A stretch of DNA of 41,714 nt from Acidimicrobiaceae bacterium (GTDB lineage: Bacteria > Actinomycetota > Acidimicrobiia > Acidimicrobiales > RAAP-2). Both the position numbers and the translations under genes were made by a program. How positions within the stretch are numbered: position 1 is the first letter of the stretch; each line of letters begins with the position of its first letter. Where the stretch lies: the NCBI GenBank assembly GCA_003155915.1, contig PMFA01000001.1, positions 1 through 41,714 of the forward strand, read 5' to 3'. Positions 27,862 to 32,899 of the stretch are shown here, piece by piece. The notes beneath the pieces are model-generated. The model searched no databases and was not told the origin of the DNA. It saw only the letters and a program-made list of their open reading frames with translations.

Positions 27862-28629
27862 ATGGCCTTGCGATCTCTCCAAAAATGGCACGGTGCGGGG
27901 AACGATTTCCTCGTAGAAGTGAGCGAACACGGAACTGCGCCGTGGTGGGACGCCGAACGGGCCCGAGCGGTCTGTGATCGAACGACCGGCGTCGGCGCCG
28001 ACGGACTCCTGCTCGCGACCTTGGGCTCTGAGGTCTCGATGACGCTCTACAACGCCGACGGCTCCGCGGCCGAGATGTCGGGCAACGGCATTCGCTGCCT
28101 CGCCGCCGCCGTTCGCCGCACGACGAACGGCACCTGGGACACGCTCGAGGTGCACACGATCGCGGGAGTGCGCACGGTGACCTTGAAGATGGAAGACACC
28201 TCCGGCTACGGCAGTGTGGAGATGGGCGACGTGACGTTCGGTGAGACGCTGGCCGGTACCCTCGGGGTCGCCTACGTGGGCAATCCGCACGTCGTGGTGC
28301 GCGACGACCCCAAGTGGACCGACGAGATGCGATCAGAACTCGCCGAAGAACTCTCCCTCGACTTCGACGGCGTCAACGTCGAATTCTTGACCGTCGAAAG
28401 CGAGGATCACCTCTCGATCAAGGTGATCGAGCGCGGCGTCGGCTGGACCAGGGCCTGCGGGACCGGTACGTGCGCGGTGGTCGCGGTCGCGCACCGCGAC
28501 GAGATGTGTGGCACCGACGTCACCGTCGACAATCCCGGCGGCGCGCTGCACGTGACGCTGAATGGCGCGGCGGCGACGTTGAGCGGTCCGGTGCAGTTCG
28601 TGGCGAACGTGGAATGGCTCGAAGCGTGA
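27862..28629 (+). CDS. dapF: Diaminopimelate epimerase with Ser at the usual Cys73
   Basis: DapF interconverts LL- and meso-diaminopimelate using two cysteines as acid/base. The 255-residue product starts LQKWHGAGNDFLV and has NADGS near 64-68. At the first catalytic site it reads SGNGIRC with Ser73, where E. coli has CGNGARC with Cys73. The second cysteine is present (C199 in RACGTGTC). A cysteine remains at 79. The codon is TCG, two changes from a cysteine codon. ATG 27862 is preceded by AGAAGA; the frame is open further upstream inside miaA. hflX overlaps its stop. The substrate is supplied by dapE at 31850. Confidence 0.92.
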   Translation: MALRSLQKWHGAGNDFLVEVSEHGTAPWWDAERARAVCDRTTGVGADGLLLATLGSEVSMTLYNADGSAAEMSGNGIRCLAAAVRRTTNGTWDTLEVHTIAGVRTVTLKMEDTSGYGSVEMGDVTFGETLAGTLGVAYVGNPHVVVRDDPKWTDEMRSELAEELSLDFDGVNVEFLTVESEDHLSIKVIERGVGWTRACGTGTCAVVAVAHRDEMCGTDVTVDNPGGALHVTLNGAAATLSGPVQFVANVEWLEA

Positions 28630-29906
28630 CCTATATACCCACTACCCTCATCGATCGCACGATCCGCGAGAAGATCGTCCTCGTCGGAGTGCAGTTCCCG
28701 GGCGTCACCCAAGACGAGCTCGATTACCAGCTCGACGAATTGGCACTCCTCGTCGACACGGCCGGTGCCGACGTGGTCGCGCGAGTCCTCCAGCGACGTG
28801 ACTCGCCCGATCCCGCGACGTTCCTCGGTTCGGGCAAGGTCCAAGAACTTCGTGAGATCTGCCTCGCGGTCGACTCCGACACCGTTGTCTTCGAGCACAA
28901 CCTCTCACCGGCCCAGCAGCGCAACCTGGAGAAGATCCTCGGGCGAACGGCGATCGACCGCACGGCCGTGATCCTGGACATCTTCGCCCAGAACGCTCGC
29001 ACGCCCGAGGGCAAGGCGCAGGTCGAGTTGGCACTGTTGCAGTACCGCCTGCCGCGTCTGCGTCGGGCCGAGGGATCGTTCTCCCAACAGGCCGGGGGTA
29101 TCGGTACGCGAGGACCGGGCGAGACCCAGCTCGAGACCGACCGGCGCCGCCTCGTGAATCGAATCCACGCTATTCGCCGCGAGTTGAAAGAGATCGACCG
29201 CACGCGCAACGTCCAGCGTCAGGGCCGCCAACGCGGACGTCACCGCGAGGTCACCCTCGTCGGCTACACCAACGCGGGGAAGTCCTCGATGCTGAACGCC
29301 ATCACCGACGCCGGCGTGGAGGCCGAGGACCGACTGTTCGTCACACTCGATCCCCGCACGCGTCAGCGCCAACTGTCCGGCGGTGAGACCGTCCTCTTTA
29401 CTGACACGGTCGGCTTCATCTCGAATCTGCCGCACGACCTCGTGGACGCCTTCATGTCCACGCTGAAGTCGGTCCAACTGGCGGACCTCTTGGTGCACGT
29501 CGTCGACGGCTCGAACGACCACGCCGAGGAACAGATCGCCGCCGTGCGAGAAGTGCTGCGCGAGATTGACGCCGACCGCGTACCCGAACTACTGGTGTTC
29601 AACAAGGCCGACGTGCCGGGATCACGGGCCCGCGATTTGGCGAAGCTGCACGAAGGCAGCGTCTGGGTCTCGGCCGTGACCCACGAGAACTTAGAGGCCG
29701 TGATCGCCACGATCGGCGATCGCCTCCGGGCCAACGACCGGGTGGTGACCCTGCACTTACCGCTCGACCGCGGCGACCTTCTGGCGCGAGCACACCGCGA
29801 AGGCGAGGTGGTCGACACGTCGATCACCGACGACAGCGTCGTGGTGCGGGTGTTGCTCGATTCGGTGAGCGTGGCCCACTTCGACGAATGGCGGGTACCG
29901 GCGTGA
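28626..29906 (+). CDS. hflX: Ribosome-splitting GTPase HflX
   Basis: HflX binds 50S/70S ribosomes and splits stalled ribosomes under stress. The 426-residue product has the N-terminal HflX domain (about 15-150, with GSGKVQEL near 65), a coiled linker with GGIGTRGPGETQLE (about 155-170) and the G domain. That domain has P-loop GYTNAGKSS starting at G213, DTVGFI near 260 and NKAD near 325. A short C-terminal domain closes it. GTG 28626 is preferred because it makes a GTGA overlap with dapF, like the other junctions here; ATG 28614 in the same frame is the alternative. Confidence 0.94.
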   Translation: MTYIPTTLIDRTIREKIVLVGVQFPGVTQDELDYQLDELALLVDTAGADVVARVLQRRDSPDPATFLGSGKVQELREICLAVDSDTVVFEHNLSPAQQRNLEKILGRTAIDRTAVILDIFAQNARTPEGKAQVELALLQYRLPRLRRAEGSFSQQAGGIGTRGPGETQLETDRRRLVNRIHAIRRELKEIDRTRNVQRQGRQRGRHREVTLVGYTNAGKSSMLNAITDAGVEAEDRLFVTLDPRTRQRQLSGGETVLFTDTVGFISNLPHDLVDAFMSTLKSVQLADLLVHVVDGSNDHAEEQIAAVREVLREIDADRVPELLVFNKADVPGSRARDLAKLHEGSVWVSAVTHENLEAVIATIGDRLRANDRVVTLHLPLDRGDLLARAHREGEVVDTSITDDSVVVRVLLDSVSVAHFDEWRVPA

Positions 29907-31006
29907 GCTTCACGCCACCCCCGTACCCGTACGAGCGCCTCGACGTCATACGAAAACTCGCGTCGGTTCACGACGGCGGCGCCATCGAGTGTTCGATCGG
30001 GACACCGATCGACGCGCCACCGGACGCGGTGCTGCGGGAGTTGGCGAAGGGCATCGGAGCCCGCGGCTATCCGACGTCACAGGGTTCGAGCGATCTTCGA
30101 GACTCGGCGGCCGCGTGGCTGCAGCGACGATTCGGTGTCACGATTTCGAGCAACGACGTGGCGGCCTGTATCGGCACCAAGGAGTTCGTCGGCACCCTCG
30201 CGGGCTACCTGCACCTGCGAACGCCCGAGCGCGACACGGTGTTGTACCCGGCGATCAGCTATCCGACCTACGCGATGGGCGCGACACTCGCCGGTCTGCG
30301 CCCGGTGCCGGTCAAGATGCGCGATGGTCGACTCGACCTCGCGTCAATCGATGCCGAGGACGTCGCGCGCGCGCTCGTCCTGTGGGCGAACTCGCCATCC
30401 AATCCGACCGGATACCTCGATGACCTGGAAGCGATCGCTGAGTGGGGCCGCCGCCACGGCGTGCCCGTGGCGAGTGACGAGTGCTACGCGGAGTTCACCT
30501 GGGCCGGGGCGCCGAGGTCGATCCTCGAACACGGCAGCGCCGGCGTACTCGCGGTACATTCGTGTTCCAAGCGCTCGAACCTCGCTGGCATGCGCGCCGG
30601 TTTCTACGCCGGCGACGAGGAGTTGGTCGGCTACCTCAAACTCGTGCGCCAGCACGCGGGCTTCATGGTGCCCGCGCCGGTACAGGCGGCGGTCGCCGTC
30701 GCCTTCGACGATGACGAGCACGTCAACGTCCAACGCGAGCGCTACCGCGATCGTCTGACGCAGATGTCCGGCGCACTCCAGGACTTCGGTGTCGAGGCCC
30801 CGATGCCCGAAGGCGCCTTCTATCTCTGGTGCTCGAAGGAGGGCCTCGACGGCTGGCAACTGGCGAGTGAGATCGCCGAGCGCTCGGCGCTCGTGACCAG
30901 CCCGGGCGAACTCTACGGCGAGGATGGGCGCGATTTCGTGCGGCTCGCGGTCGTCCAGAGCGACGAACGACTCGCGCTGGCCGCCTCGAGACTTCGAGGC
31001 GTTTGA
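29903..31006 (+). CDS. dapC: Succinyldiaminopimelate transaminase
   Basis: DapC transfers an amino group from glutamate to N-succinyl-2-amino-6-ketopimelate in the succinylase lysine route. The 367-residue fold-type I PLP enzyme has NSPSNPTG near 168-175, SDECYAEF near 193-200 and the PLP lysine K223 in SCSKRSNLAG, as in the actinobacterial DapC family. GTG 29903 overlaps the hflX stop by 4 bases; ATG 29888, five codons upstream, is an alternative. dapD follows 22 bases later. Position between dapF and dapD/dapE supports this assignment over other aminotransferases. Confidence 0.9.
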   Translation: MSFTPPPYPYERLDVIRKLASVHDGGAIECSIGTPIDAPPDAVLRELAKGIGARGYPTSQGSSDLRDSAAAWLQRRFGVTISSNDVAACIGTKEFVGTLAGYLHLRTPERDTVLYPAISYPTYAMGATLAGLRPVPVKMRDGRLDLASIDAEDVARALVLWANSPSNPTGYLDDLEAIAEWGRRHGVPVASDECYAEFTWAGAPRSILEHGSAGVLAVHSCSKRSNLAGMRAGFYAGDEELVGYLKLVRQHAGFMVPAPVQAAVAVAFDDDEHVNVQRERYRDRLTQMSGALQDFGVEAPMPEGAFYLWCSKEGLDGWQLASEIAERSALVTSPGELYGEDGRDFVRLAVVQSDERLALAASRLRGV

Positions 31007-31016
31007 ACCTCGCCAG

Positions 31017-31022
31017 TACGAT
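31017..31022 (+). promoter_or_regulatory. Leaderless-type -10 box for dapD
   Basis: TACGAT is followed by exactly 6 bases and the dapD ATG (31029), in the only non-overlapping gap of the dapC-dapD-dapE cluster. Confidence 0.5.
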
Positions 31023-31028
31023 GGCGAC

Positions 31029-31853
31029 ATGAGCGATCTCGAAACGCGCATCAGCCAGTGGTTCGACAGCATCTCGGAGATGACGCCGGAGAACGTCGAG
31101 GCTCGCCGCGACGTGGAGCTCGTGATCACCAAACTCGACGACGGACAAGTCCGCGTGGCCGACGTTGGGCCGACCGGCGCCGTCGTCGTGCACGAGTGGG
31201 TGCGCAAGGCGATCCTGCTGCTCTTCCGTTTGCGCGGTTTGGAAAAGTCCGAAGTCGGTCCCTTCGAATACCTGGACCGATTGGAGTTGAAGCGCGACTA
31301 CGAACGGCGCGGTGTTCGCGTGGTGCCGGGAGCCTCGGCGCGCCGGGGGAGCTTCCTCAGCCGCGGGGTCATCTTGATGCCGAGTTACGTCAACATCGGC
31401 GCGTGGGTCGGGGAGAACACGATGGTCGACACGTGGGCGACCGTGGGCAGCTGCGCCCAGATCGGGGCGAACGTGCACCTTTCCGGTGGCGTCGGAATCG
31501 GTGGCGTCCTCGAACCAGCCAACGCCCTGCCGGTCGTGATCGAAGATGACGCGTTCATCGGAAGTCGCTGCATGGTCACGGAAGGCGCGCGCGTCGGGCG
31601 AGGATCCGTACTCGGTGTGGGCACGGCACTCGGACCTTCGATCCCAGTGATTGACGCCGCCACGGGCGAAGAGGTGTCGCGCGGCCACGTGCCCGACTAC
31701 TGCGTGGCGGTGTCGGCTAATCGCAAGCGGGTATTTGATGGCGGAGAGTTCTATTTGCCGTGCGTACTCATCATTCGTCGCTTGAGCGAAGGTGAGCGTC
31801 ACAGCAAGACCGCCCTCAACGACATTTTGCGCGAACACGGTGTGGCGACGTGA
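31029..31853 (+). CDS. dapD: Tetrahydrodipicolinate N-succinyltransferase, E. coli-type
   Basis: DapD succinylates tetrahydrodipicolinate using succinyl-CoA. The 274-residue product equals the E. coli enzyme in length. It shares the diagnostic block MPSYVNIGA, MVDTWATVGSCAQIG, NVHLSGGVGIGGVLEP in the left-handed beta-helix (about 118-165). The N-terminal helical domain has WVRKAILLLFR near 57-67. Mycobacterial DapD proteins are longer (about 317) and quite different in sequence, so this is the proteobacterial-type form. ATG 31029 has no clear Shine-Dalgarno but a TACGAT box six bases upstream. Its stop overlaps dapE by 4 bases. Confidence 0.95.
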   Translation: MSDLETRISQWFDSISEMTPENVEARRDVELVITKLDDGQVRVADVGPTGAVVVHEWVRKAILLLFRLRGLEKSEVGPFEYLDRLELKRDYERRGVRVVPGASARRGSFLSRGVILMPSYVNIGAWVGENTMVDTWATVGSCAQIGANVHLSGGVGIGGVLEPANALPVVIEDDAFIGSRCMVTEGARVGRGSVLGVGTALGPSIPVIDAATGEEVSRGHVPDYCVAVSANRKRVFDGGEFYLPCVLIIRRLSEGERHSKTALNDILREHGVAT

Positions 31854-32899
31854 GCCGATTGGACGACGCGCTCGAGCTCGTGGCGATCGATTCGGTGAGC
31901 CGCGGCGAGGCGGCGATTGCTCATCACGTGGCGGTCGTGCTCGCACGTAACCCCGATCTCGACGTGGAGCGAATCGGTGACAATGTGGTTGCGCGAACGA
32001 CGGGCCACCACGCCACACGACTCTTGGTCGCGGGTCACCTCGATACGGTGCCCGGCGACGCGAGTTCGGCCACGATCGTGGGCGACGAACTGCGCGGCGT
32101 CGGCGCGTGCGACATGAAAGGTTCGTTGGCGGTGATGCTCGAGCTGGCGTCCGCACCGACGCCACGCTCGGTTGAGGTCACCTGGGTTTTCTACGCCCGC
32201 GAGGAGATATCGCGAAGCGACTCCGGGCTTCTCGAGATCAAGGAACTCCGTCCGGACCTGTTGGACGCCGACGCCGCGATCCTCGCCGAACCGACCGACG
32301 GTCGTGTCGAAGCGGGATGCCAAGGTTCGTTGCGCGTGTCGGTCGTGATGAAGGGCGCGAGGGCTCATACGGCGCGACCATTCACGGGACGAAACGCCAT
32401 CCACCGTCTGGGTGACGTGATAACGAAAGTGGCCGGCTACGAGCCGCGAGCGACCACGATCGACGGGATCGAATTCGTTGAACAGCTCCAGGTCGTGGAC
32501 ATATCCGGGGGAGTGGCGCCGAACGTGGTGCCCGATCGAGCACTGTGCACGCTGAACCACCGATTCGCTCCCGATCGAACCAAGGACGAGGCGTTCGCCT
32601 GGATCGTCGAGTTTCTCAGCGACGTCACCGACACCGGCGACACGGTGCGACTCGTGGACTGGGCACCGCCCTCTCCGCCGTCGATGACCAATGAACGCCT
32701 CGCCTCACTGGTCGAACTGACCGGCGAGCGACCCAAGGGGAAGCTCGGCTGGACCGATGTCGCGACCTTCACCGAATTGAGTATTCCCGCGACGAATTTC
32801 GGTGCGGGCGATCCGTTGCTCGCTCATCGGAGCGATGAGTTCGTGACACTGGCGCAACTGGACCAGTTTGCTTCTGTGCTGTCAGCGTGGCTTAAGTAG
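31850..32899 (+). CDS. dapE: Succinyl-diaminopimelate desuccinylase
   Basis: DapE hydrolyses N-succinyl-LL-diaminopimelate to LL-diaminopimelate and succinate. The 349-residue M20-family metallopeptidase has GHLDTVP (H63, D65), ACDMKG (D88, bridging), AREE (E118 catalytic, E119) and AEPTD (147-150). The last zinc ligand is in AHRSDE near the end. A dimerisation lid lies at about 170-280. The start is GTG 31850, overlapping the dapD stop (GTGA). It converges on lexA across a 44-base gap in which no clear terminator is seen. Confidence 0.93.
   Translation: MSRLDDALELVAIDSVSRGEAAIAHHVAVVLARNPDLDVERIGDNVVARTTGHHATRLLVAGHLDTVPGDASSATIVGDELRGVGACDMKGSLAVMLELASAPTPRSVEVTWVFYAREEISRSDSGLLEIKELRPDLLDADAAILAEPTDGRVEAGCQGSLRVSVVMKGARAHTARPFTGRNAIHRLGDVITKVAGYEPRATTIDGIEFVEQLQVVDISGGVAPNVVPDRALCTLNHRFAPDRTKDEAFAWIVEFLSDVTDTGDTVRLVDWAPPSPPSMTNERLASLVELTGERPKGKLGWTDVATFTELSIPATNFGAGDPLLAHRSDEFVTLAQLDQFASVLSAWLK

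What the first reader, a model, noticed from the sequence alone, without database searches (positions are those of the whole stretch)
28078..28098. DapF has Ser73 in place of the catalytic Cys73
In well-studied diaminopimelate epimerases two cysteines (E. coli 73 and 217) abstract and donate the proton. Here residue 73 is serine (SGNGIRC), coded by TCG, two substitutions from a cysteine codon. The second cysteine (C199) is intact, and a cysteine remains at 79. All other lysine genes nearby look intact, and meso-diaminopimelate is needed for the wall. Either this lineage uses a Ser/Cys pair or Cys79, or a second epimerase exists.
Basis: partly seen in the sequence, partly recalled or inferred. 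Interest (0 to 1): 0.55.

Follow-up and report, generated by a model that had tools for sequence, protein, structure and literature searches.

The report
Diaminopimelate epimerase with serine replacing cysteine
An enzyme thought to make a building block of bacterial cell walls has serine in place of one of the two sulfur-bearing amino acids that do its chemistry, as do its relatives across a whole order of actinobacteria; some other groups have lost both, and at least one of those is reported to contain the building block.

Summary
DapF (27862-28629, +) has Ser73 (TCG, 28078-28080) where characterised enzymes have the first catalytic Cys; the second (Cys199) is intact. It is not an error: in all 59 genomes with a dapF hit, among the window's own and 60 relatives, the residue is Ser, from both codon families. 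A 92-row clade covering its order and ten more families of the class has 90 Ser, 2 Thr, no Cys. Substrate-contact residues are kept. The genome has one DapF, LysA, and no Ddh over cut-off. Best reading: a working epimerase with a Ser/Cys acid-base pair, as in a solved hydroxyproline epimerase of the same fold. Cys79 is unlikely; no second epimerase was found. No activity was measured; function is inferred. New variant of a known kind.

The parts
27862..28629 (+). dapF, diaminopimelate epimerase, 255 aa, Ser73/Cys199 type
   Evidence: TIGR00652 180.5 bits vs cut-off 114.65; model pLDDT 93.9, best Foldseek hits are DapF structures
28078..28080 (+). TCG, Ser73, at the position of the first catalytic Cys (E. 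coli 73, Anabaena 75); directly before helix 74-87 of the model
   Evidence: alignment to solved DapFs
28096..28098 (+). TGC, Cys79, common in ordinary Cys/Cys DapFs too; not a likely replacement base
28456..28458 (+). TGC, Cys199, second catalytic Cys (E. coli 217, Anabaena 224), directly before helix 200-212 of the model
   Evidence: C in 92 of 92 rows of the Ser73 clade
28429..28434 (+). Glu190-Arg191, equivalent of Anabaena Glu215/Arg216, which bind the distal end of DAP
   Evidence: invariant in 252 of 252 aligned sequences; role from PMC12039745
26921..27856 (+). miaA, ending 5 bases before the dapF start
   Evidence: TIGR00174 220 bits over cut-off 148.65
28626..29906 (+). hflX; probable GTG start at 28626, overlapping the dapF stop
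   Evidence: TIGR03156 430 bits over cut-off 216.75 for 28629-29903; overlap read
29888..31006 (+). dapC, succinyl-DAP transaminase (actinobacterial type)
   Evidence: TIGR03539 best model, 334.2 bits, a little under its cut-off of 355.65
30924..31853 (+). dapD, tetrahydrodipicolinate N-succinyltransferase
   Evidence: NF008808 312.2 bits over cut-off 204
31850..32899 (+). dapE, succinyl-DAP desuccinylase
   Evidence: TIGR01900 382.5 bits over cut-off 304.2

Best explanation
The gene encodes a working LL-DAP epimerase whose acid-base pair is Ser73/Cys199 instead of Cys/Cys. LL-DAP is bound as in ordinary DapF (shown: the contact residues are kept; binding itself is inferred). Residue 73 faces the L side of the reacting carbon, since LL-aziDAP alkylates the equivalent Cys75 in Anabaena DapF; residue 199 faces the D side. 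So (inferred) Ser73, at the N-terminus of helix 2 in a closed, nearly dry site, takes the alpha-proton in the LL-to-meso direction and Cys199 supplies one on the other face; Cys199 thiolate is the base in reverse. The polarity is that of the Ser93/Cys236 hydroxyproline epimerase. The state became fixed in the ancestor of the clade (inferred from the tree).
For: Ser73 in 59 of 59 genomes with a hit and in all 29 sampled families of the order. In the 92-row clade: 90 Ser, 2 Thr, 0 Cys; 63 of the 89 rows with a codon read have a serine codon one substitution from Cys; at least 11 changes of codon class on the tree with the hydroxyl kept; Cys199 92 of 92. Contact residues N14, N64, N75, N141, N172, E190, R191, G200 are the same in all types apart from 1 gap at N14 and 2 Ile at N141 among 252 (roles from PMC12039745). 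One DapF-family gene in each of 20 genomes checked. LysA over cut-off in 24 of 24. Ddh over cut-off in 0 of 61, 0 of 30 and 0 of 20 genomes (overlapping sets), with the control over cut-off in 2 of 14. meso-DAP is tabulated for Iamia majanohamensis (PMC12263773), whose genome length equals that of G038, a Ser/Cys genome. Ser/Cys precedent in the same fold: PMC4113996; an A. vitis hydroxyproline epimerase with bound substrate, 4lb0, probably that protein, is among the fold hits. dapF lies with dapC, dapD and dapE.
Against: Cys-to-Ser mutants of this fold are poor: turnover of HisR C67S and C209S is greatly reduced (PMC11602996), and such mutants of DapF-like enzymes are used because catalysis is hindered (PMC12039745). 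From memory, C73S of H. influenzae DapF does not epimerise. Serine is a much weaker acid than cysteine, and no compensating change was shown. Ddh searches gave sub-threshold matches in 22 of 61, 5 of 30 and 6 of 20 genomes (at most 29.8 bits against 180.6), which I read as unrelated dinucleotide-binding proteins without testing it. No assay of a natural enzyme of this type came up in my searches.
Confidence: 0.66

Rival explanations
1. The enzyme epimerises DAP, but Ser73 is not the base: a water or hydroxide held where the thiol was, or Cys199 alone as shuttle, moves the proton.
For: Anabaena DapF keeps two waters in the closed site (PMC12039745), and Ser/Ser enzymes exist, so some non-thiol route may be available.
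Against: Residue 73 keeps a hydroxyl (Ser or Thr) in all 92 rows of the clade, never Ala or Gly as a mere water pocket would allow. The precedent structure assigns the Ser a catalytic role.
Confidence: 0.14
2. This DapF no longer epimerises DAP (kept for another role), and an unknown enzyme, for example a PLP-dependent racemase, makes meso-DAP.
For: Laboratory Cys-to-Ser mutants of the fold have greatly reduced turnover. Family searches cannot see an unknown family, and PLP-dependent racemases were not searched for.
Against: The DAP contact residues are kept, the gene sits with dapCDE, no Ddh over cut-off was found and no second DapF-family gene in 20 genomes. Counting all Ser types, it would have to have happened on several separate branches.
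Confidence: 0.15
3. Cys79 (or another cysteine) has taken over as the base.
For: Cys79 is present in the window protein and in 87 of 92 clade rows.
Against: Cys79 is also the usual residue in Cys/Cys enzymes (58 of 82) and is absent from some Ser73 enzymes. In the model it lies inside helix 74-87, while residue 73 stands directly before that helix.
Confidence: 0.03
4. Sequencing or assembly error.
For: None.
Against: A 94% identical homologue (L064) and all other relatives with a hit carry Ser, with TCN and AGY codons, among them single-contig genomes whose lengths match published type strains.
Confidence: 0.01

Closest known systems
Diaminopimelate epimerase DapF, Cys/Cys type (H. influenzae, E. 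coli, A. thaliana, Anabaena, C. glutamicum; TIGR00652)
   Same: Passes the curated model, same fold, same substrate-contact residues, same pathway neighbours, second catalytic Cys kept.
   Different: First catalytic Cys is Ser73, so no thiol/thiolate pair can form.
4R-hydroxyproline 2-epimerase Avi_0518 (B9JQV3), proline racemase superfamily, Ser93/Cys236
   Same: DapF-like fold, with a natural Ser on the face that serves the L-configured substrate and Cys on the other.
   Different: Other substrate and family (Pfam PF05544). The window protein is not a member; PF05544 finds nothing in G000 at E 0.001.
trans-3-hydroxyproline dehydratase B9K4G4 (Ser90/Thr256)
   Same: Active-site Ser replacing Cys in the same fold; loosely comparable with the Ser/Ser DapFs.
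   Different: A dehydratase that needs one base, not an epimerase.
H. influenzae DapF C73S mutant (PDB 2q9h)
   Same: Same residue pair at the two catalytic positions.
   Different: Engineered; natural Ser/Cys enzymes have evolved with it.

Membership tests
DapF (TIGR00652 equivalog) | Score over the curated cut-off | tested here: met
   180.5 bits vs 114.65; a Ser/Ser member, P0002, also passes with 192.8
DapF | DapF-like two-domain fold | tested here: met
   pLDDT 93.9; Foldseek ranks 1-26 are DapF entries (some as RppH-DapF complexes) except O-ureidoserine racemase 7vdy
DapF | First catalytic cysteine (E. coli Cys73) | tested here: not met
   Ser73
DapF | Second catalytic cysteine (E. coli Cys217) | tested here: met
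   Cys199
DapF | DAP-contact residues (Anabaena N13, N66, N77, N164, N197, E215, R216, T226) | tested here: met
   N14, N64, N75, N141, N172, E190, R191, T201 all present in the window protein
DapF | LL-DAP epimerase activity | not testable with these tools
   indirect only: single DapF gene, LysA present, no Ddh over cut-off, and meso-DAP reported for a Ser/Cys isolate
Proline racemase superfamily (PF05544) | Match to the family model in the window's genome | tested here: not met
   no match in G000 at E 0.001

The most novel reading that the evidence does not exclude
DAP epimerase does not need thiols. Through repeated Cys-to-Ser switches Actinomycetota evolved Ser/Cys, Cys/Ser and fully thiol-free Ser/Ser DapFs that all epimerise LL-DAP, so the thiol/thiolate mechanism taught for cofactor-independent racemases is one solution among several. 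Such enzymes would also be proof against a disulfide between the two positions and against reagents that attack the lost thiols.
Probability: 0.45. Interest if true: 0.82.

Novelty: new variant of a known kind. Interest (0 to 1): 0.62.

Why it matters
Deprotonating an amino-acid alpha-carbon (pKa about 29) without a cofactor is explained in DapF by an unusual thiol/thiolate pair (PMC12039745). Natural enzymes that keep the binding residues but have serine at one or both positions, in lineages for which meso-DAP is reported and no other known route was recognised, put the need for the thiols directly to the test. DapF is a long-standing antibacterial target (same paper), and the aziDAP inhibitors react with these very cysteines. 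The curated model TIGR00652 passes both Ser proteins that I tested as ordinary DapF, so the change does not show in such annotation.

Tried and rejected
1) I first took residue 195 (Trp in the window, Glu in most Cys/Cys sequences) for the equivalent of H. influenzae Glu208 and saw it relaxed in Ser73 enzymes. Reading PMC12039745 showed that Glu208 is Glu190 here (the E of ERG, 252 of 252); residue 195 also varies in proven enzymes (Ile in Anabaena, Ala in A. thaliana), so that idea is dropped. The pair test was not significant either.

2) Residue 62 is aliphatic in 161 of 162 non-Cys73 sequences and Tyr, Phe or His in 72 of 90 Cys73 sequences. But Cys/Cys relatives near the Ser/Ser groups are aliphatic too, and there are only 4 independent pairs, the trait going the same way in 1.8 of them on average, so I claim no compensation.

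3) Cys79 as replacement base, a second DapF, Ddh and (for 19 genomes) a proline-racemase-type enzyme were looked for and not supported. PF05544 did hit 3 of the 19: the two f88 Ser/Ser genomes strongly, and G042 weakly. For f88 a second racemase-fold protein therefore exists; its role is unknown. Outside the 20 genomes some relatives do have more than one DapF match: of the 59, G060 has two full copies (both Ser/Cys), G014 has a second fragmentary copy (also Ser) and G027 is split over two contigs.

4) A one-clade (AU) test of all non-Cys73 rows did not finish, so the number of origins rests on the quick tree (SH-aLRT only).

5) Plasmid records with DapF relatives were listed (107 records) but not read at residue 73. 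Phyla other than Actinomycetota were therefore not surveyed.

6) Rows dropped before counting: of 292 loci with a DapF match, 9 were left out (two duplicate copies of the window gene and seven fragments or second copies) and 31 near-identical duplicates, leaving 252. The tree used 196 of these: all rows outside the window's genus, and a part of the genus and of the named loci. The sample is not random: relatives of the window are over-represented, and part of the phylum sample was chosen for low DapF score, so row counts are not frequencies. In the phylum search 22 of 246 genomes had no DapF match.

Full report
What is there. The window holds miaA - dapF - hflX - dapC - dapD - dapE on the + strand. 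dapF (27862-28629) starts after a gap of 5 bases behind miaA, and a GTG that probably starts hflX overlaps the dapF stop. The DapF protein has 255 residues and passes the curated DapF model at 180.5 bits against a cut-off of 114.65. In the alignments to solved DapFs that I viewed (7 of 17 distinct sequences) the residue is Cys in six and Ser only in 2q9h, which is titled a C73S mutant of diaminopimelate epimerase.

It is a lineage trait. Of 61 genomes searched (the window's own and 60 relatives), 59 have a DapF match. All 59 have Ser at this position: 57 by the motif script and G027 and G037 by eye. Two genomes carry a further copy (G060, full; G014, fragmentary), again with Ser. The second Cys was read in all 58 distinct motif loci. 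Both serine codon families occur. Of 80 named homologous loci, 78 have Ser, L090 has Thr and L133 gave no motif. Among 252 non-duplicate sequences from the order, class and phylum the types are Ser/Cys 149, Cys/Cys 82, Ser/Ser 11, Cys/Ser 8 and Thr/Cys 2. By family, for the rows with a family code: Ser/Cys in all 29 sampled families of the window's order; in the rest of the class 10 families Ser/Cys (one also Thr/Cys), 11 Cys/Cys and one mixed Cys/Cys and Cys/Ser; in other classes 34 Cys/Cys, 5 Cys/Ser, 5 Ser/Ser and 1 Ser/Cys. The sample is not random.

Tree. With the two catalytic columns removed, 196 of the 252 sequences give one Ser/Cys clade of 92 rows (SH-aLRT 96) covering the sampled rows of the window's order and the Ser/Cys families of the class: 90 Ser, 2 Thr, 0 Cys. 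A separate Ser/Cys group (f73, 3 rows), three Ser/Ser groups (f84+f87, f77+f85, f88) and Cys/Ser in four places complete the picture; the fewest changes are 7 at residue 73 and 6 at residue 199. Support is SH-aLRT from a quick search, and several deep branches are weak. Within the clade the codon class (TCN, AGY, ACN; read in 89 of 92 rows) changes at least 11 times while the residue keeps a hydroxyl, and Cys199 is unchanged in 92 of 92. 63 of the 89 codons (AGC 50, AGT 9, TCC 3, TCT 1) are serine codons one substitution from Cys, so the lack of reversion suggests that Ser is held by selection (inference).

What else is kept. PMC12039745 (introduction and sections 2.1-2.3 read; passages elsewhere) lists the residues of Anabaena DapF that touch DAP. 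Their equivalents here (N14, N64, N75, N141, N172, E190, R191, G200, T201) are present in the window protein and are the same across Cys/Cys, Ser/Cys, Cys/Ser and Ser/Ser sequences, apart from one gap at N14, two Ile at N141 and Thr/Ser exchange at T201, which the Cys/Cys type shows too. At Gly74 three Cys/Cys sequences of one family have Val, and Gly202 is Ser in one Cys/Ser and two Ser/Ser sequences. Thus the atom that moves the proton changes and the substrate pocket hardly does. The predicted structure (pLDDT 93.9) puts Ser73 and Cys199 directly before helices 74-87 and 200-212, the arrangement the paper describes for the catalytic cysteines, and its best PDB matches are DapFs.

Is meso-DAP made, and by what else could it be? 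LysA is over cut-off in 24 of 24 genomes checked, including the window's. DAP dehydrogenase over its cut-off was found in 0 of 61, 0 of 30 and 0 of 20 genomes (these sets overlap). Short matches under the cut-off occurred in 22, 5 and 6 of them (at most 29.8 bits against 180.6); I did not follow them up. The control genomes passed in 2 of 14. Each of 20 genomes has one DapF-family gene, seen as two domain matches in one frame. PLP-dependent racemases were not searched for. Three Ser/Cys genomes have contig lengths equal to published genomes: G038 4,576,919 (Iamia majanohamensis F12, PMC12263773, passages), G086 4,830,181 (Ilumatobacter coccineum, PMC3910706, passages) and G073 2,158,157 (Acidimicrobium ferrooxidans, PMC3035218, passages). 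PMC12263773 tabulates meso-DAP for Iamia. The same table gives dd-DAP for Dermatobacter hominis and no entry for Aquihabitans daechungensis, while the text names Actinomarinicola tropica as the exception, so the paper disagrees with itself on one strain, wall chemistry in the group may not be uniform, and whole-cell DAP typing is coarse. From memory, Ilumatobacter has been described with LL-DAP; I did not see this in a call.

Ser/Ser enzymes. In the order of G285, 119 of 121 genomes matched its DapF. I read 49 further loci there (48 distinct genes: the next best 29 and 20 chosen lower down, one of them a repeat); all are Ser/Ser. With f105 and f106 from this order, Ser/Ser was seen in seven families. 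One genome, G479, has a single contig of 6,359,369 bases, the length of the Conexibacter woesei genome. PMC3035278 (passages) gives its wall as A1-gamma with meso-DAP and says that meso-DAP is diagnostic for all members of Solirubrobacterales. G479 has no Ddh over cut-off (best 22.9 bits against 180.6) and one DapF gene; its LysA was not searched. The Ser/Ser protein P0002 of G285 passes TIGR00652 at 192.8 bits and aligns over nearly its whole length with A. thaliana DapF at E 1e-48.

Mechanism. In Anabaena DapF, LL-aziDAP alkylates Cys75 and DL-aziDAP alkylates Cys224, so residue 73 serves the L face. In the window enzyme Ser73 should therefore be the base in the physiological direction and Cys199 the acid. 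A close precedent is the Ser93/Cys236 hydroxyproline epimerase Avi_0518, with Ser for trans-to-cis and Cys for cis-to-trans (PMC4113996, passages; the paper's text and legend give different accessions and Cys numbers for this protein). Shown: sequence, conservation, pocket residues, genome content. Inferred: activity, the role of Ser73 as base, the reason for the switch. One possible reason is protection from a disulfide between the two cysteines; a structure titled oxidized DapF of C. glutamicum exists (5h2g), but I did not read that paper.

Against. Cys-to-Ser mutants in this fold are impaired (PMC11602996, passages; PMC12039745). No assay of a natural Ser DapF turned up in six searches of the open library, of whose listed papers I saw passages or sections of three (PMC12039745, PMC11602996, PMC6254735) and only the listing of the rest. 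That library lacks most subscription journals, so absence from print is not shown.

Verdict. The most likely function is ordinary (LL-DAP to meso-DAP) by an altered acid-base pair. It is a new variant of a known family, of interest because it makes the need for thiols testable with natural enzymes.

Noticed in passing
DAP-contact residues were checked in the 11 Ser/Ser sequences and are kept.
   Followed up: partly
L208, L210, L243, L269, L276, L281, L292, L293: DapFs of the opposite kind, Cys at the first and Ser at the second catalytic position, in four places of the tree.
   Followed up: partly
L090, L164: Threonine (ACC) at the first catalytic position, twice inside the Ser73 clade; a possible step between the TCN and AGY serine codons.
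   Followed up: no
L239, L240, L274: Small-genome family f33 of the class has CVNG instead of CGNG: Val where a Gly backbone amide binds the substrate carboxylate, on a very long branch.
   Followed up: no
L112, L079, L108, L127: Contigs titled Saccharibacteria or Acidobacteria(ota) carry DapFs 56-67% identical to the window's; probably mislabelled or misbinned actinobacteria.
   Followed up: no
window 29888-31006: dapC scores 334.2 bits with the actinobacterial DapC model, a little under its cut-off of 355.65, so automatic naming may miss it.
   Followed up: no
L301, L302: The two f88 Ser/Ser genomes also carry a strong proline-racemase-family gene (PF05544), unlike the other nine Ser/Ser genomes.
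   Followed up: no
residue 62 of DapF (window 28045-28047): Leu/Ile/Met/Val in 161 of 162 non-Cys73 sequences but Tyr, Phe or His in 72 of 90 Cys73 sequences; too few independent pairs to claim a link.
   Followed up: yes
PMC12263773, table and text of its chemotaxonomy section: The table gives dd-DAP for Dermatobacter hominis while the text names Actinomarinicola tropica as the strain that differs; wall DAP in this order deserves re-measurement.
   Followed up: no
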